DNA of 36,739 nt, taken from positions 1 to 36,739 of the forward strand of contig NZ_FOIF01000015.1 in assembly GCF_900111575.1 (NCBI RefSeq). The letters run 5' to 3'. Shown one piece after another: positions 2,846 to 23,829 of this stretch. Within the stretch, counting starts at the first letter, position 1. Every line of letters begins with the position of its first letter. Both the position numbers and the translations under genes were made by a program. Source of the stretch: Anaerobranca gottschalkii DSM 13577 (GTDB lineage Bacteria; Bacillota; Proteinivoracia; Proteinivoracales; Proteinivoracaceae). The notes under the pieces were generated by a model that saw only the letters and a program-made list of their open reading frames with translations, did not search any database and was not told where the DNA came from.

Positions 2846-3625
2846 TTAAGCGGTGTATTTAACTATAATACTGTTATTTAAAACTCTAAAGGTAAATGAC
2901 TCACTGATAAACAGCTTTACTTTTTTATTATCATGCCATTCATAACCGATACTAAAATCATGGCCTATAGTTAATTCTAAATCATTATGATTAAAAGGTA
3001 GTAATAAAGCTCCATCGATGTATTTACTATATACGATTTCTTTCCCTAGCAATTCTTCGATAATTTTCTTTAAAGGATAGCCATTGACTACTTGGTTTAC
3101 TAAATTCCACACCTTTTCTCCTACTATTAAAGTATATGGCCCTTCCTCAAAAGCATCCCTTAATTTTAGGATTCCCTGGGAAATACCTTTTAAAATACTT
3201 TCAACATCTTCGCCTAATGAAATAGTTGTCTCAGCAACTTCCATTAAACCTTTAATGTTACCTTGGGGAAAACCATTATAAATAGCATTTTCTTCAAATT
3301 CCGCAATTTTCTTAGCTGCTTCTTCCAATGAAGTTAAATCTATATCTTTAGCTCCCCTTATGAAATTATCCATTTCCCAACGGTCTAACTCAAAGGTGAA
3401 TCTAGTTTCTACCAATGGTTGGACTTCATAAAGTCCACTATTAGTTCCTTCGATCATCGTCAATCTTCCCGTTGCTAAGGCATTGTAATCCCAACCTTTA
3501 GGTCCTTGAACGTTGACAACTTTTCTAGCGGAAAGATTAGTCTTTAAAACTTGTGCTGCCCTTTCTTCTATCTCATCCCATACTTCCTTTGTAAGGGGTG
3601 CTAAATTTCTTTTTAAAACATCCAT
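2846..3625 (-). CDS. Encapsulin shell protein (family 1, linocin M18-like)
   Basis: The 259-residue HK97-fold shell protein self-assembles into an icosahedral protein nanocompartment. Family features seen are the N-terminal MDVLKRNLAPLTKEVWDEIE helix, which in this family forms the inner cargo-docking surface, the segment GPKGWDYNALATGR near residue 41, and the C-terminal domain ending in SESFTFRVLNNSIIVKYTA. Length is normal. The start ATG follows AAGGAGG with a 7-nt gap. It lies 12 nt downstream of the encapsulated-ferritin gene in the same operon, the classic cargo-shell arrangement for iron storage and oxidative-stress defence. Confidence 0.93.
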   Translation of the reverse strand: MDVLKRNLAPLTKEVWDEIEERAAQVLKTNLSARKVVNVQGPKGWDYNALATGRLTMIEGTNSGLYEVQPLVETRFTFELDRWEMDNFIRGAKDIDLTSLEEAAKKIAEFEENAIYNGFPQGNIKGLMEVAETTISLGEDVESILKGISQGILKLRDAFEEGPYTLIVGEKVWNLVNQVVNGYPLKKIIEELLGKEIVYSKYIDGALLLPFNHNDLELTIGHDFSIGYEWHDNKKVKLFISESFTFRVLNNSIIVKYTA

Positions 3626-3637
3626 TTATATCCCTCC

Positions 3638-3988
3638 TTATTTCATATCACCAATCTTTAATTTTGTATCTAAATCATTGTCATGACCATTTCCATGGTC
3701 ATCACCATGCTGTCCTACAATGGGACCTTCTTTGAATAATGTATTTCTCAATTCTTCATCCCATTTAGGCATATTTCTCCTTAACCATTCAATGGTCATG
3801 CAAGCATGTTCAATTTCTTCATCTCTGTTGTGTATTAAAATAGCTTTTAATTGTTCATCGGCTACTGTAGCAATCCTTTGATTATAATAATCTACTGCTT
3901 CTAATTCTTCTTTCAAGCTAGTTATTGCTTTAGAAATATCCCTAGTTTTGTCATCTAACAATTGATATGGCTCTTGATAGTTACTCAT
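3638..3988 (-). CDS. Encapsulated ferritin-like protein (EncFtn cargo)
   Basis: The 116-residue protein has two helices carrying the EncFtn ferroxidase residues, here E27/E30 in the first helix and E58 with H61 (EEIEHA) in the second. A tail follows, with a His/Asp-rich linker (residues 93-105, four His) and the last residues LDTKLKIGDMK. The tail resembles the short cargo-loading peptides (hydrophobic-x-hydrophobic-G-polar-hydrophobic) that dock EncFtn inside encapsulin. It should oxidise Fe(II) at a decamer interface and feed ferric mineral into the shell. The frame is open further upstream, but ATG 3988 follows GGGGG by 9 nt and gives the family's normal N-terminus. Confidence 0.92.
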   Translation of the reverse strand: MSNYQEPYQLLDDKTRDISKAITSLKEELEAVDYYNQRIATVADEQLKAILIHNRDEEIEHACMTIEWLRRNMPKWDEELRNTLFKEGPIVGQHGDDHGNGHDNDLDTKLKIGDMK

Positions 3989-4031
3989 CTTTTCATACCC
4001 CCTGTTTTTTTTAATAATTATTACTAATAAA

Positions 4032-4060
4032 AGTATAGCACTTTTTCCATAATTAAACAA
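4032..4060 (-). promoter_or_regulatory. Sigma-A promoter of the EncFtn-encapsulin operon
   Basis: On the minus strand: TTGTTT (4060-4055), 17 bp, TATACT (4037-4032), about 45 nt before the EncFtn start. I see no obvious Fur or PerR box, though the whole area is AT-rich. Confidence 0.7.
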
Positions 4061-6268: not shown

Positions 6269-7558
6269 TTATAAAGAACATAATTGACACTTATGATTTA
6301 TCATAAAGGGAATTTTTATGAAATCCCTTTCTAAGCCATCATACATCAATACACTCCCTTGTAGGTTTGATTTAATACCTACAAGGTTTTTTATTACTTC
6401 TACAGATTGTAATACCCCAATAGTCCCTGGCAAAGAGCCTACTATCCCAATTTCCCTTTTTACAAAGTAGTCTTCCTTTTCTGGAACCATACAGCGATAA
6501 CAAGGTGTTACTTTGGGAATAATATTTGTTACTTGTCCATAAAAGGTTTTAATTGCCCCTTCCACATAAGGGATATTTTCCCAATAACAACCATCATTTA
6601 AAATATACCGGCTAGGTATGTTATCTAAAGCACCGACAACGACTCCATAATCTTTGATTATTTCCTGGACATTTTCATCTGTAACCTTCAATTTATAAGG
6701 CACTATTTTAACATCTGGATAAAGGGATGATAGAAGTTTCTGAGCTGATTCAACTTTAGCAACCCCTATTTTAGATGTGGAATGGAGAATTTGTCTATTA
6801 AGATTACTCATCTCAACTTGATCATAGTCCACTAATCCAATTGTACCAATCCCCAACTTTGCTAAAGTTAATGTAACGGGAGAACCCAATCCACCTGTAC
6901 CTACAACCAATACCTTTTTATCCCGTAAATTTAAATTACCTAAGTTAATCCTATTTTCTCCTAGTTCTAAATTTGAATCACTGGTTAAAAGATCAAAGGT
7001 AAATCCCCCGTGTAAAGAAACCCCTAAACCTATCACCTTCTTAATTACTTCAGTAGTCAAAATAGTTCCTAAAAAGTTACAAGAAAGGTTAAGGCCAATA
7101 GTATCCTCCTCTTTTTCAAAATCCTTAGCTTGGAATAAAATTCTTTCCACATCTTTTTGATTATTACATTCTTTAATGTAAACCCTCCAAGGTTGAGCTA
7201 TAGCAATGATATAGGACCCTTCTTCTACTTTTTCTATTACTTCCTCAATAAAACTTCTATCTCCAACAATTATAGTTGTCGGTTTTTCATAATCTGATTT
7301 TATATAGTTTATAATCCCTTTAATTTCGATATTTAAACTGGGATTTAAGTCTTTAGCATGCTGGACTATACTATCTACATTAGAAACTTTACTTAAAAAT
7401 AATGTAATATTATTTATTCCAACGGCAGCTAAATAAAGCAGGAGTAAATCGCAGTTTTCAATTTTTTCCGCCAATACTTCTACCTTTTCCTCCATAAGTT
7501 TTTTTTGTCCCTTTTCTCCTATCTGTGGAATAATAATCTGTCGGCGAAAACGATCCAA
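6269..7558 (-). CDS. Tandem E1-like (ThiF/MoeB/HesA) protein with degenerate N-terminal half
   Basis: The 429-aa protein is made of two ThiF-fold halves. The C-terminal half (about 205-429) is a normal adenylating domain: GTGGLGS at 220-226, Asp244, NRQ 254-256, Asp312, and a four-Cys zinc site at C353/C356 and C424/C427. The N-terminal half (1-195) opens with the usual FRRQIIIPQIGEKGQKKL and ends with NFLGTILTTEVIKKVIGLG (161-179), which aligns with SLPGTIGVLQSVEVIKNLVG (375-394). It has lost the glycine-rich nucleotide loop and the Cys pairs. The layout recalls the inactive plus active halves of eukaryotic E1. The C-half would adenylate the C-terminus of a ubiquitin-like sulfur carrier; no ThiS or MoaD gene is nearby. 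Start TTG 7558 follows GGGAGGGG by 6 nt. Confidence 0.85.
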   Translation of the reverse strand: MDRFRRQIIIPQIGEKGQKKLMEEKVEVLAEKIENCDLLLLYLAAVGINNITLFLSKVSNVDSIVQHAKDLNPSLNIEIKGIINYIKSDYEKPTTIIVGDRSFIEEVIEKVEEGSYIIAIAQPWRVYIKECNNQKDVERILFQAKDFEKEEDTIGLNLSCNFLGTILTTEVIKKVIGLGVSLHGGFTFDLLTSDSNLELGENRINLGNLNLRDKKVLVVGTGGLGSPVTLTLAKLGIGTIGLVDYDQVEMSNLNRQILHSTSKIGVAKVESAQKLLSSLYPDVKIVPYKLKVTDENVQEIIKDYGVVVGALDNIPSRYILNDGCYWENIPYVEGAIKTFYGQVTNIIPKVTPCYRCMVPEKEDYFVKREIGIVGSLPGTIGVLQSVEVIKNLVGIKSNLQGSVLMYDGLERDFIKIPFMINHKCQLCSL

Positions 7559-7632
7559 TAAAATCCCCTCCCATGAAAACTTTGTTTATTTAAATATTCT
7601 GCATATAACGGAGTTTTCCTGCTTTAAGGAAC

Positions 7633-7662
7633 AAAAGAGGTTGGCTCTAACCAACCTCTTTT
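7633..7662 (-). terminator. Terminator of the trehalose operon
   Basis: A 12-bp perfect stem (7633-7644/7651-7662, AAAAGAGGTTGG/CCAACCTCTTTT) begins at the treR stop codon and ends in TTTTG on the minus strand. Confidence 0.85.
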
Positions 7663-18824: not shown

Positions 18825-19130
18825 CTATTTTTGATAAATAACAACTCCGTAATTTTCTATTTCTCTTTTTAACTCTTCATTTTGTAAAGTCTCGAAGTTA
18901 ATTACATCAAAATAAAATGGTAAGGGTAGCTCTTCATTTAAAATGACCCTCAATCTATTAACGGTATTATCACTTATTTCTTTTCCAAAAACTGCCACAT
19001 CAATATCGGAACCTCTTTTATAATTACCTTTACTTCTACTTCCGAAAACAACTGCTTTGTCTATATCTGGAAACTTATATATAGTATTAACTATTAAATC
19101 CATACTTTTTTTAGAAATTCCAAATTTCAT
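18825..19130 (-). CDS. MNT-type nucleotidyltransferase, antitoxin-like (MntA)
   Basis: The 101-aa minimal nucleotidyltransferase has VVFGSRSKGNYKRGSDIDVAVFG: G30-S31 bind the nucleotide phosphate, and D42 and D44 bind metal. In the MntA/HepT systems this protein AMPylates (adds AMP units to) a Tyr of the HEPN toxin and so disarms it. It lies 10 nt after the HepT-like gene, in the HI0074-HI0073 order. The active site looks intact. Confidence 0.88.
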   Translation of the reverse strand: MKFGISKKSMDLIVNTIYKFPDIDKAVVFGSRSKGNYKRGSDIDVAVFGKEISDNTVNRLRVILNEELPLPFYFDVINFETLQNEELKREIENYGVVIYQK

Positions 19131-19140
19131 ACTTGGTCAC

Positions 19141-19524
19141 CTAAATATTCATATACTTGAGATAACCCTCTATAATACTCACTTTAATTTTTTCTATTGC
19201 TAAGTTAAACCTTTCTTGATCGTAAGTATTGGCTAAAAGGTTTCGTTTCTCTAACATATCCATCCAAACTTCCCCATCTTCTATAATGTTATACCGAAAA
19301 GCTTCTTTAATAACTTCCCTTGGAAAATTAGCATTTACTCCATTTATCTCTAAATAATCTTTTAATGTTTTCCAGGCCAATTCAAAGGTATATTCAAATC
19401 TTTGAATTAGTCCTTCTTTTTCTAAAGTATTTAATTTCTCTACTTTTAACACCGCATCGTTAAATTGAATAAAAGCTTTACTGAAACTTTGGTATCTTTG
19501 TTTCCATCTTTCTTCACTTTTCAA
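19141..19524 (-). CDS. HepT-like HEPN protein (HI0074 family), catalytic His replaced
   Basis: The 127-aa all-helical protein of the nucleotidyltransferase substrate-binding (HI0074)/HepT family carries the family segments ELAWKTLKDYLEINGV and VIKEAF. The HEPN RNase motif R-x4-6-H-x-Y reads R94-NLLA-N99-T-Y101, so Arg and the modifiable Tyr are kept but the His is Asn (AAT codon). RNase toxicity may therefore be weak or lost. TTG start at 19524 follows GGGGGG. It lies 32 nt downstream of parC and may receive its transcript. Confidence 0.85.
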   Translation of the reverse strand: MKSEERWKQRYQSFSKAFIQFNDAVLKVEKLNTLEKEGLIQRFEYTFELAWKTLKDYLEINGVNANFPREVIKEAFRYNIIEDGEVWMDMLEKRNLLANTYDQERFNLAIEKIKVSIIEGYLKYMNI

Positions 19525-19556: not shown

Positions 19557-21740
19557 TTATTCAAAAAGGGATAACTCTTCTATTTTTTCTAAAGAATCTT
19601 CTTTTTTAAGAAAGGTGCCAATTGCAGGAATGTTAGCCCGATAATAATCTGGAATAGTGAAACTTACTCCTTCTAACTCTTTAATTTGGGTCAAGGTGCT
19701 ACCTTTTTTAGATTTTAATACTTGTACTCCTATGGAATTCCTCGTCGTTTTAGGATTGATTTGCCCGGTATGGAAAAGTAGTACCTTGTTTATACTACTT
19801 ACAGCTACTAATTCTTTATCTTCCTTAATAAAAGTTAAGTAAATCAATTTTTCCTCATCGGAATAGGCATTGGCCAACTGTTTTCTGTTTGTTTTCGTTT
19901 GGTAACTTTCTAATGGGATTTTAGCACATTTTCCATTTTGGAAGAAAAACAACAAATAGCCAGAATAATCTTCTGTTGAAACCATATAGATTATTTTTTC
20001 ATCATCTGCTAATCCTAAGAGATTCTTCAAATAGTCCCCTAAAATACTGGCTTTTTTATCTTCTAATTCGTATGCCTTTAATTTATACACAATATGTTTA
20101 TTGGAAAATAGGAGTAAATCCGACTTATTAGTCCCTTCAACTTCTTGGATGATGTAATCATCGTCCTTTAATTTTTGATCCTTACCACCACTTCTTAAAG
20201 ATATTAAAGGAATTTTTTTTAGGTAATTTTCATTAGTTAAAAAGAATTTAACATTATAATCTTCTATTAAAACTTCTTCTGTTACTTTTTCAATTTTACT
20301 TTCCTCAATAATTTCAGTTTTTCTCCCTTGAGCATACTTTTTAATTACTTCTTCTAATTCTTTAATAATGATATTTTTTTGTTTTTTAGTACTCTCAAAA
20401 ACCCCCTGCAAATTTTCTAATTCTTTTTCCATAGTCTTTATATCTTTAATTTGGTTCAAAATATATTCTTGATTAAAATTTCTTAATTTAATATCTGCAA
20501 TAAATTCCCCTTGAACCCGATCGACGGAAAAACCTGCCATTAAATTAGGAACAACATCTTTATCCTTTTTGGTATCCCTAACTATTTTTACCGCCTTGTC
20601 TATATCTAAGAGAATTTTTTCTAACCCTTTAAGCAAATGGAGTTTCTCCCTTTTTTGTCCTATTTCAAAAGCAACTTTCCTTTTAATACAACTAAGCCTA
20701 AATTGAATCCACTCTTGCAAAATTTCTTTAACCCCTAAAACTTGAGGCTTACCATCAATTAAAATATTAAAATTACAGCTAAAGGAATCTTGTAAGGGAG
20801 TTAACTTAAATAACCGGTTCATTAATCCATCAGGATCAGCACTTCTTTTAAGCTCTAAAGTAATTTTAAGACCTTCTTTATCGGTTTCATCCCGAATATC
20901 GTTAATCTCCTTTATTTTACCATTTTTGACTAATTCTATAATTTTTTCTATAATCCCTTCAATAGTAGTGGTATAAGGAATTTGATAGATTTCTATATAG
21001 TTATTTCTTTTATCATAGCGGTATTTGGCCCTTAAGTAAAAACTACCTTTCCCTGTTTTATAAATGTTTTGTAATTCTTTTTTATTGAGGATAAACTGTC
21101 CACCTGAGGAAAAATCCGGTCCTTTTAGGAACTGGCTTATATCAGCTTCTTCATCTTTTAACAAAGCAATAGTAGCCTCACAAACTTCCTTTAAATTAAA
21201 ACTACAGATAGAACTGGCCATACCTACAGCAATTCCTACATTAGGATTAACTAGAATATGGGGAAAAGTTGTAGGCAATAACTTAGGCTCTTCCATGGTG
21301 TTATCATAGTTAGGGACAAAATCTACTGTGTTTTTCCCTATATCTTTAAAAAACTCTTCACAAATAGGATCAAGTTTTGCTTCGGTATATCTAGGAGCAG
21401 CATAGGCCATATCTTTAGAATAATTTTTTCCAAAGTTTCCCTTACTATCAATAAGGGGATGCAAAAGGGCTTCATTTCCCCTAGTTAGCCTCACCATTGT
21501 TTCATAAATTGCCGCATCCCCATGGGGGTTTAACCTCATCGTTTGACCTACAATATTGGCGGATTTTGTTTTCCCACCCTTTAACAGGTTCATTTTATAC
21601 ATAGTATACAACAGTTTACGATGGGATGGTTTTAAGCCATCAATTTCCGGCAATGCCCTAGAAACGATAACACTCATGGAATAAGGCATATAATTTTTTT
21701 CTAAAGTATCAATTATATTAAGGTGGGTTAAGTTTGACAT
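19557..21740 (-). CDS. parC: DNA topoisomerase IV subunit A (clostridial ParC type)
   Basis: The 727-aa type IIA topoisomerase breakage-reunion subunit has catalytic Tyr118 in AAPRYTEAKL and the winged-helix DNA-binding region KPSHRKLLYTMYKM near 37-50. A long coiled coil (about 365-470) and a shorter C-terminal domain replace the six-blade GyrA pinwheel with its GyrA box, which favours topo IV over gyrase. The quinolone-determining loop reads NPHGDAAIYE: Ala76 sits where GyrA has Ser83, and Glu80 where it has Asp87. Its partner gene parE lies 20 nt upstream. ATG 21740 follows AAAGGAG. Confidence 0.88.
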   Translation of the reverse strand: MSNLTHLNIIDTLEKNYMPYSMSVIVSRALPEIDGLKPSHRKLLYTMYKMNLLKGGKTKSANIVGQTMRLNPHGDAAIYETMVRLTRGNEALLHPLIDSKGNFGKNYSKDMAYAAPRYTEAKLDPICEEFFKDIGKNTVDFVPNYDNTMEEPKLLPTTFPHILVNPNVGIAVGMASSICSFNLKEVCEATIALLKDEEADISQFLKGPDFSSGGQFILNKKELQNIYKTGKGSFYLRAKYRYDKRNNYIEIYQIPYTTTIEGIIEKIIELVKNGKIKEINDIRDETDKEGLKITLELKRSADPDGLMNRLFKLTPLQDSFSCNFNILIDGKPQVLGVKEILQEWIQFRLSCIKRKVAFEIGQKREKLHLLKGLEKILLDIDKAVKIVRDTKKDKDVVPNLMAGFSVDRVQGEFIADIKLRNFNQEYILNQIKDIKTMEKELENLQGVFESTKKQKNIIIKELEEVIKKYAQGRKTEIIEESKIEKVTEEVLIEDYNVKFFLTNENYLKKIPLISLRSGGKDQKLKDDDYIIQEVEGTNKSDLLLFSNKHIVYKLKAYELEDKKASILGDYLKNLLGLADDEKIIYMVSTEDYSGYLLFFFQNGKCAKIPLESYQTKTNRKQLANAYSDEEKLIYLTFIKEDKELVAVSSINKVLLFHTGQINPKTTRNSIGVQVLKSKKGSTLTQIKELEGVSFTIPDYYRANIPAIGTFLKKEDSLEKIEELSLFE

Positions 21741-21760
21741 CTAGTCCACTCCTTTTAAAA

Positions 21761-23734
21761 CTAAATAACATCTGATTGATCTAAATATTTATATCCATTT
21801 TGGGCAATAAAATCTTTTCTTCCTTCTAAATTATCTCCTAGGAACAGCTCAAAGGCTTCCCTTGTAGCATGGTATTCAGCTGGAGTAACTTTTATAAGCC
21901 TTCTAGTTTCAGGATTCATTGTAGTTTTCCACATCATTTCCGGCTCATTTTCTCCTAATCCTTTGGATCTTTGGATTTTAAATCCATCCTTTAATTTTTT
22001 GGTAATATCCCTTTTCTCTCCTTCAGAGTAAGCAAAATAGACATTGCCTTTTTTATCAGTAATTTCATATAAGGGTGATTCCGCTATATACACATAGCCC
22101 TTTTCAATTAAAGTAGGAGTTAAAACATAGAGCATTGTCAAAATTAATGTCCTTATTTGAAAACCGTCTACATCTGCATCGGTACAAATAATTATTTTAC
22201 TCCAGTTAAGCTTACTTAAATCAAAGGTGTTTAAATCACTATGCTTACTTTTTATTTCTACACCACAACCTAAAACTTTCAACAAATCCACAATGATTTC
22301 ATTTTTAAAGATTTTATCATAGTCAGATTTTAAACAATTGAGGATTTTCCCTCGAACTGGGATAATAGCTTGAAATTCTGCATCACGGCCCATTTTAGTT
22401 GAACCTAAAGCTGAATCCCCTTCAACTATAAATAACTCCCTTTTACTGACATCCTTAGTCCGACAATCTACAAATTTCTTTACTTTGTTAGCAAAATTGT
22501 CTACACCTTTACTTAATTTCTTTTTAACATCAAGGCGGGTCATTTCTGCTTTTTCTCTACTACGTTTATTAATCAATACTTGCTCTAAAACCCGTTCTAG
22601 TTCAAAATTGTTTTCAATAAAATATATTTCTAACTTTTCTTTTAAGAAATTAGTTAGTGCTTCCTGAATAAATTTGTTAGTTATAGCTTTTTTTGTTTGG
22701 TTCTCATAACTGGTTATAGTTGAATAGGTATTAGTCACTAAAACTAAGCTATCTTTGATGTCACTAAAACTTATTCGTTTTTCATTTTTAGTGTACTTAT
22801 TTTTTTCCTTTAAAAAGTGATGAATGATAGATGTAAATGCTCCATCTACTGCTTTTTCTGGAGCTCCACCATATTCAAGATAGGAAGAATTATGATAAAA
22901 CTCTAATAAGTTTTTTTCGTTATTAAAGGCAAAGGCAACTTCTAACCTTACTTTATACTCTTCTTTATCTTCCCTATCCTTACCTTTAGTTTCTAGTTCA
23001 AAATACTGAGGTTGAGTTAAAGGATTTTCACCGGCAACTTCCTTTACATAATCAATAATACCATTGGGATATAGCCAGGTATAGGTCTTGTCCCCTTCTT
23101 CATCATATAACTTAAAGGTAACCCCTTTATTGACTATAGCTTGTCTTTTTAATGTTTGAATAAAAAAGCTTAAAGGTATATCAATATCATTAAATACTTC
23201 TAAATCCGGTTTCCAGCGAATAATAGTACCTGTATGCTCATAATTACATTTTTCTTTATGTAATCCCCCGATATTTTCCCCTTTTTCAAAGTGAAGGGTA
23301 TATTTATAGCCATCCCGATAAACAGTAACATCCATATACTCTGAAGCAAACTGGGTAGCTGCAGTTCCTAATCCATTTAAACCAACACTGTATTGGTAAT
23401 TACTTCCCGAATTGTTGTTATACTTACCTCCACCATAGAGTATAGTAAAAACTATTTCCCAGTTATACTTTTCTTCTTTACTGTTATATTCTAAGGGAAT
23501 ACCCCTTCCTCTATCTCTAACCTCTATAGATTTATCTTTATAGCGAATAACTTCAATTATATCACCAAACCCTTCTTGAGCCTCATCTCGGGCATTGGCA
23601 ACTATTTCTACTAAAGTATGGCAGCATCCTTCTATTCCATCACTTCCAAAGATAACCGCTGGCCTTAACCTTACTTTATCTTTTTCGACCAAAGTCTTAA
23701 GACTATCATTATCATAGTTGTGCTTTCTTTCCAT
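21761..23734 (-). CDS. parE: DNA topoisomerase IV subunit B (clostridial ParE type)
   Basis: The 657-aa ATPase subunit has a GHKL ATPase with EIVANARDEAQ near 43, DRGRGIPLEY near 73 and GLNGLGTAATQFAS near 115. A transducer domain follows, then the TOPRIM domain with EGDSALGSTKMGRD near 425 and DADVDGFQIRTL near 512 for Mg2+, and a C-terminal segment ending in LDQSDVI. The SALG variant of the usual SAGG is typical, as far as I recall, of this clostridial paralogue. ATG 23734 lies 5-6 nt after GAGGGG; the upstream extension lacks support. First gene of parE-parC, with a sigma-A promoter. Confidence 0.88.
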   Translation of the reverse strand: MERKHNYDNDSLKTLVEKDKVRLRPAVIFGSDGIEGCCHTLVEIVANARDEAQEGFGDIIEVIRYKDKSIEVRDRGRGIPLEYNSKEEKYNWEIVFTILYGGGKYNNNSGSNYQYSVGLNGLGTAATQFASEYMDVTVYRDGYKYTLHFEKGENIGGLHKEKCNYEHTGTIIRWKPDLEVFNDIDIPLSFFIQTLKRQAIVNKGVTFKLYDEEGDKTYTWLYPNGIIDYVKEVAGENPLTQPQYFELETKGKDREDKEEYKVRLEVAFAFNNEKNLLEFYHNSSYLEYGGAPEKAVDGAFTSIIHHFLKEKNKYTKNEKRISFSDIKDSLVLVTNTYSTITSYENQTKKAITNKFIQEALTNFLKEKLEIYFIENNFELERVLEQVLINKRSREKAEMTRLDVKKKLSKGVDNFANKVKKFVDCRTKDVSKRELFIVEGDSALGSTKMGRDAEFQAIIPVRGKILNCLKSDYDKIFKNEIIVDLLKVLGCGVEIKSKHSDLNTFDLSKLNWSKIIICTDADVDGFQIRTLILTMLYVLTPTLIEKGYVYIAESPLYEITDKKGNVYFAYSEGEKRDITKKLKDGFKIQRSKGLGENEPEMMWKTTMNPETRRLIKVTPAEYHATREAFELFLGDNLEGRKDFIAQNGYKYLDQSDVI

Positions 23735-23829
23735 TTCTTCCCCTCTTTTCTCTTTAACTACTACTAATAAATATACCACATTTAAGGAAAAAATCCATGT
23801 TTAACTTTTTGCGACAATAATCTACTTCT

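What the first reader, a model, noticed from the sequence alone, without database searches (positions are those of the whole stretch)
6269..7558. Single-chain E1-like enzyme with a pseudo-enzyme first half
The protein is an internal duplication. Residues 161-179 align with 375-394, and the N-terminus has the usual E1 opening, but the first half has lost the GxGGLG loop and the zinc cysteines while the second half keeps them all. Bacterial ThiF/MoeB are homodimers of active subunits; this resembles the inactive-plus-active design of eukaryotic E1, made in one bacterial chain. No carrier protein gene is adjacent.
Basis: partly seen in the sequence, partly recalled or inferred. Interest (0 to 1): 0.6.

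Follow-up and report, generated by a model that had tools for sequence, protein, structure and literature searches.

The report
Single-chain half-inactive MoeB-type E1 enzyme
This bacterial gene makes a MoeB-like enzyme in which a dead copy and a working copy are joined in one chain, the layout of our own ubiquitin-activating enzyme; gene context suggests it serves sulfur-carrier proteins for tungsten-cofactor and perhaps cysteine synthesis rather than protein tagging.

Summary
The gene (minus strand, 7558..6269, 429 aa, TTG start) encodes two ThiF/MoeB domains in one chain. The first half keeps the fold and the N-terminal RFRRQ helix that carries the "arginine finger". It has lost the GxGGLG loop, the NxNRQ stretch, the catalytic Asp and the zinc cysteines. 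The second half keeps all of these but lacks its own finger helix, so one composite site is left. Evidence: profile match of the halves (score 73; 40 column shuffles at most 18), AlphaFold model (pLDDT 90.6, pTM 0.93), and Foldseek matches of the whole chain to UBA1 and to a bacterial E1-E2-Ubl complex. The layout recurs in 28 further Bacillota proteins, whose active halves form one clade. A NifU/IscU-like gene with the first ligand Cys changed to Asp lies just upstream, or is fused N-terminally, in 12 of them. In two lineages the gene sits in tungsten-oxidoreductase/molybdopterin clusters; in another it is followed by cysteine synthase. This genome has one MoaD-like carrier, in a tungsten-oxidoreductase operon, and one other ThiF-family protein (TcdA-like). 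Best reading: an asymmetric MoeB-type E1 for sulfur carriers, not a ubiquitin E1. BilD is a prior bacterial single-chain case.

The parts
6269..7558 (-). double-domain MoeB/ThiF-type E1 gene, 429 aa, TTG start at 7558-7556, stop ends at 6269
   Evidence: homologous gene at the same syntenic place in G001 (76% identity) and G002 (42%)
6959..7558 (-). residues 1-200: inactive (pseudo-enzyme) adenylation half, ThiF/Rossmann fold without GxGGLG, NxNRQ, catalytic Asp or zinc cysteines
7535..7552 (-). residues 3-8, RFRRQI: N-terminal helix motif with Arg6 = arginine finger (MoeB Arg14, ThiF Arg11); Arg6 present in all 28 homologues whose N-terminus is resolved
   Evidence: role of the finger from PMC13139853
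6275..6940 (-). residues 207-428: active adenylation half (MoeB/ThiF), without an N-terminal finger helix of its own
6884..6901 (-). residues 220-225, GTGGLG: nucleotide-binding loop of the active half
   Evidence: all four glycines invariant in 29 of 29
6623..6625 (-). Asp312 = MoeB Asp130, catalytic/Mg aspartate; with Arg255 (MoeB Arg73, 6794-6796) and Lys268 (MoeB Lys86, 6755-6757)
   Evidence: invariant in 29 of 29; alignment to MoeB; residue roles in PMC12355090
6278..6502 (-). zinc cysteines Cys353, Cys356, Cys424, Cys427 of the active half
6458..6460 (-). residue 367 (Lys) where most relatives (23 of 29) have the crossover Cys (position of MoeB Cys187/ThiF Cys184); lost here and in G001
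7565..7572 (-). GGGAGGGG ribosome-binding site of the double-E1 gene

Best explanation
A MoeB-type E1 enzyme whose usual homodimer has become one asymmetric polypeptide. SHOWN by sequence and model: the first half is a degenerate MoeB/ThiF copy that keeps the fold and the arginine-finger helix but has no nucleotide site; the second half keeps the whole ATP/adenylation site and zinc site but has no finger helix of its own. INFERRED: the halves pack as a pseudo-dimer with one composite active site, in which the first half stabilises the second and places Arg6 on the ATP bound in the second half. The enzyme then adenylates the C-terminal glycine of small beta-grasp sulfur carriers, here the only MoaD-like protein of the genome (ends FPPVGGG, encoded in a tungsten-oxidoreductase operon). 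The adenylate is converted to a thiocarboxylate for tungsten/molybdenum cofactor synthesis; in other lineages probably also, or instead, for cysteine synthesis. In many relatives a NifU/IscU-like protein, adjacent or fused, probably hands in the sulfur; in this lineage that domain has been lost.
For: Architecture: halves homologous; model pLDDT 90.6, pTM 0.93; whole chain matches UBA1 over both adenylation domains (TMq up to 0.68) and a bacterial E1 (0.73-0.74) against 0.48 for one MoeB/ThiF chain; half 1 alone matches MoeB best. Complementary loss: Arg6 in 28 of 28 resolved N-termini, no finger motif in the linker of any, active-site residues of half 2 invariant in 29 of 29. The first helix folds confidently only in the full-length model (first-block pLDDT 85 against 55 for half 1 alone). 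Function: best PDB sequence match is MoeB (E 5.8e-41). The genome has one MoaD-like carrier, in an operon with an AOR and a W_rSAM_matur-like radical SAM protein, and its only other ThiF protein is TcdA-like. In G048 and G089 the double E1 is the sole PF00899 match although 2 and 5 carriers are present. G371: MoaD-like, AOR, NADH-dehydrogenase-like subunits and double E1 on one strand. C. psychrophilum: MoaA, MoaC, MoeA, a MogA-like protein, XdhC, NifU-like and double E1 within 9 kb, with AOR and MoaD-like nearby. C. bowmanii and C. frigoris: MoaD-like and AOR next door. AOR in 14 of 14 double-E1 genomes against 227 of 398 overall.
Against: No biochemistry. In nine of the relatives only cysteine synthase and BioY are linked, not tungsten or molybdopterin genes. 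MoaE is not detected in 13 of 14 double-E1 genomes; it is rare in the phylum (46 of 398), so the next step of a MoaD pathway is not identified. The 14-of-14 AOR figure is not independent of kinship. The arginine finger is reported as not essential in MoeB, ThiF or yeast Tcd1 (PMC13139853). The half-half packing comes from one AlphaFold model whose coordinates could not be measured here.
Confidence: 0.75

Rival explanations
1. A generalist or cysteine-biosynthesis E1: it charges a ThiS/MoaD-like carrier whose thiocarboxylate feeds cysteine synthase (as CysO/MoeZ/CysM in mycobacteria, from memory), and the link with tungsten cofactor is secondary.
For: In nine genomes of two families (G048, G254, G157, G231, G124, G089, G380, G183, G341) a cysteine-synthase-like gene (PF00291) follows directly on the same strand, overlapping or within about 30 bases. 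Cysteine/methionine genes also lie near it in Acetobacterium and L058. G048 and G089 have several carriers but a single ThiF-family protein.
Against: In this genome, its genus and the Clostridium and G371 cases there is no cysteine gene next to it, and in Clostridium and G371 the links are to tungsten/molybdopterin genes. The one carrier here lies in a tungsten-oxidoreductase operon.
Confidence: 0.35
2. A ubiquitin-like conjugation E1 (as eukaryotic UBA1 or bacterial BilD) that passes a Ubl to an E2 and target proteins.
For: Same inactive-plus-active single-chain layout and fold.
Against: No Cys-domain insertion or UFD is visible in the 429 aa; the crossover Cys is absent in this protein; no E2, JAB or Ubl gene seen in the windows read; best sequence matches are MoeB/ThiF.
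Confidence: 0.04
3. The first half is not simply inactive but a regulatory or second substrate site, for example binding a second ligand or the NifU-like sulfur donor, and is retained for that reason.
For: Invariant Y42, G47, N72 and nearly invariant W124, E170, K173 in half 1 show it is under selection; NifU-like neighbour or fusion at its N-terminus.
Against: All known nucleotide-contact motifs of the ThiF fold are gone; most of the conserved positions could be core or interface residues.
Confidence: 0.2
4. A decaying duplicate or frameshift artefact with no function in the first half.
For: Low identity between the halves (17-18%).
Against: 29 homologues in Bacillota, single clade (support 90/97), 23-65% identity in half 1 to the window, conserved Arg6, continuous ORFs.
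Confidence: 0.01

Closest known systems
MoeB / ThiF (homodimeric sulfur-carrier adenylyltransferases)
   Same: Second half: same fold, GxGGLG, Asp130/Arg73/Lys86 equivalents, zinc cysteines; 37% identity to MoeB over the matched stretch; arginine finger supplied by the other half/subunit.
   Different: One chain with a dead first half, one active site instead of two; crossover Cys lost in this member.
Eukaryotic canonical E1 (UBA1; NAE1-UBA3; SAE1-SAE2)
   Same: Inactive domain plus active domain, single chain as in UBA1; a finger arginine that pairs with the active-half arginine is conserved (human UBA1 Arg57 and Arg515, PMC12355090).
   Different: No FCCH/SCCH or UFD; sequence far from UBA1 (about 14%); context is sulfur-cofactor metabolism.
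BilD, E1 of the bacterial BilABCD system (PMC11354881; PDB 8tyz/8tz0 as bacterial E1-E2-Ubl structures)
   Same: Bacterial single chain with N-terminal inactive and C-terminal active adenylation domain; TM 0.73-0.74 to this model.
   Different: BilD carries an about 80-residue Cys domain and works with E2/JAB in conjugation; not among the PDB sequence hits shown for this family; operon most frequent among alpha-proteobacteria.
Yeast Tcd1-Tcd2 (PMC13139853)
   Same: Pseudo-enzyme plus active ThiF-type subunit; the dead subunit supplies the arginine finger and stability; one active site.
   Different: Two genes, tRNA substrate.
Uba4/MOCS3 and MoeZ (E1 with rhodanese domain)
   Same: MoeB-type E1 serving sulfur carriers, with a built-in sulfur-transfer domain.
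   Different: Rhodanese at the C-terminus; here, in some members, a NifU/IscU-like domain at the N-terminus.

Membership tests
E1-like superfamily, MoeB/ThiF branch | ThiF fold with nucleotide loop GxGGLG and catalytic Asp/Arg/Lys | tested here: met
   Second half: Pfam ThiF E 3e-66; residues invariant in 29 of 29
E1-like superfamily, MoeB/ThiF branch | CxxC...CxxC zinc site | tested here: met
   C353/C356/C424/C427 in half 2; absent in half 1 of the window protein
MoeB equivalog | passes NCBIfam MoeB equivalog cut-offs as a homodimeric single-domain protein | tested here: not met
   All MoeB models below cut-off (for example TIGR02355 183 against 376.6); two-domain chain
MoeB/ThiF | adenylates a ThiS/MoaD-type carrier | not testable with these tools
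   A single carrier and no other MoeB/ThiF-type E1 in the genome make it likely; no assay
Canonical (UBA1-type) E1 | inactive + active adenylation domains packed as pseudo-dimer | tested here: met
   Foldseek over both domains, TMq up to 0.68; prediction only
Canonical (UBA1-type) E1 | catalytic Cys domain(s) and ubiquitin-fold domain | tested here: not met
   429 aa are accounted for by two ThiF folds; no insertion or C-terminal UFD
BilD-type bacterial E1 | Cys domain in the active half and operon with Ubl, E2 and JAB | tested here: not met
   No insertion; no such genes seen in the neighbourhoods read
IscU/NifU scaffold (linked gene in relatives) | three cluster-ligand cysteines | tested here: not met
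   First Cys replaced by Asp in 11 of 11 E1-linked copies, the other two kept; scores below the TIGR03419 cut-off of 187.9 (157-181) while the genome's own IscU scores 217

The most novel reading that the evidence does not exclude
The sulfur-carrier branch of E1 enzymes independently evolved the eukaryote-like asymmetric single-chain E1, and in the same family recruited a NifU/IscU-like protein that has given up cluster building (first ligand Cys to Asp) as a dedicated sulfur donor to the E1-carrier adenylate, a relay different from the rhodanese route of Uba4/MoeZ. The donor domain and the crossover Cys were later lost together in lineages such as this one.
Probability: 0.3. Interest if true: 0.72.

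Novelty: new variant of a known kind. Interest (0 to 1): 0.55.

Why it matters
Why eukaryotic E1 enzymes carry a dead adenylation domain is usually discussed in connection with protein conjugation. A family of MoeB-type enzymes with the same layout, apparently working on sulfur carriers, would show that the asymmetry can arise in metabolism without any conjugation chemistry, and gives a small system (about 430 aa, one active site) in which the role of the dead half and its arginine finger can be tested. The linked NifU-like genes point to a possible undescribed sulfur relay in anaerobic Bacillota that make tungsten enzymes.

Tried and rejected
Ubiquitin-like conjugation system: rejected as the main reading; no E2, JAB or Cys domain seen. 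Thiamine (ThiF) role: not supported; the one PF02597 protein is MoaD-like in a tungsten-oxidoreductase operon, and the PF05690 (ThiG) match in this genome is a weak partial hit to an ORF of 316 aa, so that search was uninformative. MoaE as partner: absent in 13 of 14 double-E1 genomes, but also rare in the whole phylum sample (46 of 398), so the absence says nothing special about this family. Co-loss of NifU-like neighbour and crossover Cys: 12 of 12 linked members have the Cys and all 6 Cys-less members lack the link (Fisher 0.024), but the tree gives only about 3-4 events and the paired test cannot reach significance; kept as a lead. Mobility: no plasmid record covers 80% of the protein. NifU-like genes next to single-domain MoeB loci: none found in the short flanks held. 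Literature: the searches of the open library found no description of this family or of a NifU-E1 link; subscription papers are not held, so prior description elsewhere is possible. BilD and UBA1 were not put in the tree, so independent origin is inferred from sequence closeness to MoeB, not tested by a tree.

Full report
1. What is there. The ORF at 7558..6269 (minus strand) encodes 429 aa from a TTG with a good ribosome-binding site. A hairpin followed by T's lies between the upstream GntR-type regulator gene and this gene, and the gene on the other side is convergent, so it looks like a single-gene unit (reading of the sequence, not tested). Pfam sees one ThiF domain, residues 207-418; all NCBIfam best stretches and PDB sequence hits shown for the single protein also lie in the second half.

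2. The first half is a ThiF domain. Relatives with the same two-part layout were found in the same genus, the same family and other Bacillota. With 29 of them aligned (A3) the two halves match each other by profile comparison at 97.7% (E 1.4e-12), and at 97.5% without the first 23 residues; 40 column-shuffled controls score at most 18.3 against 72.7. A profile of half 1 alone (A4) finds ThiF and MoeB among PDB sequences (E 1.2e-11 and 6.5e-7). AlphaFold models: full length pLDDT 90.6, pTM 0.93; half 1 alone pLDDT 89.4, pTM 0.87. Foldseek: half 1 alone is closest to MoeB (TM 0.73), then SUMO E1 chains and ThiF.

3. Complementary loss. In half 1 the nucleotide loop, the NxNRQ stretch, the catalytic Asp and the zinc cysteines are gone; what stays is the opening R(F/Y)xR(Q/H) helix, with Arg6 in 28 of 28 sequences with a resolved N-terminus, plus Y42, G47 and N72 in all 29. 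In half 2 the nucleotide loop, Asp244, Asn252, Arg255, Lys268, Asp312 and three zinc cysteines are invariant (the fourth in 28 of 29), but no finger motif precedes it in any member. In MoeB and ThiF this arginine (Arg14, Arg11) reaches into the active site of the other subunit (PMC13139853), and human UBA1 uses Arg57 together with Arg515 at the gamma-phosphate site (PMC12355090). So each half has kept what the single remaining composite site needs. The first helix is confidently folded only in the full-length model (first-block pLDDT 85 against 55), as expected if it docks on half 2. Caution: the finger is reported as not essential in MoeB, ThiF and Tcd1.

4. Arrangement. The whole chain matches UBA1-type structures over both adenylation domains (TMq 0.61-0.68) and a bacterial E1-E2-Ubl complex (0.73-0.74), against 0.48 for one MoeB or ThiF chain. 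This supports the pseudo-dimer packing, as a prediction.

5. Distribution and origin. Full-length hits occur in 14 of 398 sampled genomes of the phylum and in named genomes including Acetobacterium wieringae, Clostridium bowmanii, C. psychrophilum, C. frigoris, Thermosediminibacter litoriperuensis and Sporomusa malonica. The active halves of the 29 double proteins form one side of a branch against 29 single-domain relatives (support 90/97): one origin is favoured.

6. Context and function. (a) This genome has one other ThiF-family protein, TcdA-like, and one MoaD/ThiS-family protein, which ends FPPVGGG and lies in an operon with an aldehyde:ferredoxin-oxidoreductase-like gene, a protein matching the tungsten-oxidoreductase radical SAM maturase model (below its cut-off) and a sigma-54-type activator. 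AOR-linked MoaD genes, often with MoeB, are a described theme (PMC1779556). (b) In G371 the MoaD-like gene, AOR, NADH-dehydrogenase-like subunits and the double E1 follow one another on one strand. In C. psychrophilum the double E1 lies in a molybdopterin cluster (MoaA, MoaC, MoeA, MogA-like, XdhC). In C. bowmanii and C. frigoris MoaD-like and AOR genes are next door. (c) G048 and G089 have no other ThiF-family protein but several carriers, which points to a generalist. (d) In nine genomes of two families a cysteine-synthase-like gene follows directly, so cysteine synthesis is a serious second role. (e) All 14 double-E1 genomes of the sample have AOR against 227 of 398 (Fisher 4e-4, not corrected for kinship). 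MoaE is missing in 13 of 14 but rare in the whole sample.

7. The NifU/IscU-like partner. A NifU_N protein of about 121-137 aa is encoded just upstream in eight loci and fused in front of the double E1 in four (G002, L050, L051, and partly seen in L061). In all 11 complete copies the first ligand Cys is Asp, while the other two Cys are invariant; the genome's own IscU keeps all three. In G002 the fused form lies at the same syntenic place (trehalose genes on one side, phospholipase-D-like and NhaC-like genes on the other) as the unfused gene of the window, so a loss of the domain in this genus is the simplest reading. Members lacking the crossover Cys (window, G001, L032, L059, L064, L073) all lack the NifU-like link; suggestive, too few events to prove. 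The proposal that this protein is a sulfur donor is inference.

8. Comparison and novelty. Not a MoeB equivalog by cut-off, not a canonical E1 (no Cys or UFD domains), not BilD (no Cys domain, no E2/JAB seen). BilD shows that single-chain inactive-plus-active E1s were already known in bacteria (PMC11354881). What appears new is this design in the MoeB sulfur-carrier branch, with NifU-like fusions. The genus could be Anaerobranca (a guess from genome size and relatives, not tested).

Noticed in passing
window 2846-3625 and 3638-4060, minus strand: An encapsulin (Linocin_M18, PF04454, E 3e-80) next to an encapsulated-ferritin-like protein (EncFtn-like, PF22277) with a charged C-terminal tail that may be a targeting peptide: a likely iron-storing nanocompartment.
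   Followed up: partly
window 18825-19524, minus strand: A nucleotidyltransferase (PF18765/PF01909) and its NTase-substrate-binding partner (PF08780), a typical MNT/HEPN-type pair and possible toxin-antitoxin module.
   Followed up: no
window 19557-23779, minus strand: A type II topoisomerase pair (DNA_topoisoIV A subunit 727 aa; gyrase-B-like subunit) in which the A subunit has only a weak match to the gyrase C-terminal propeller.
   Followed up: no
phylum sample of 398 genomes: AOR-type tungsten oxidoreductases are found in 227 of 398 genomes but Pfam MoaE in only 46, so most AOR-bearing Bacillota here have no recognisable molybdopterin synthase large subunit; either a very divergent MoaE or another sulfur-insertion enzyme.
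   Followed up: partly
L053:5567-5932, L062:5595-6008, L005:1042-1440 and others: A NifU/IscU paralogue with the first ligand Cys replaced by Asp (GNPxDGD), linked only to the double E1 in the loci examined.
   Followed up: partly
window 7633-7661: A hairpin plus T run between the GntR-type regulator gene and the double-E1 gene, probably the terminator of the trehalose operon (read by eye).
   Followed up: no
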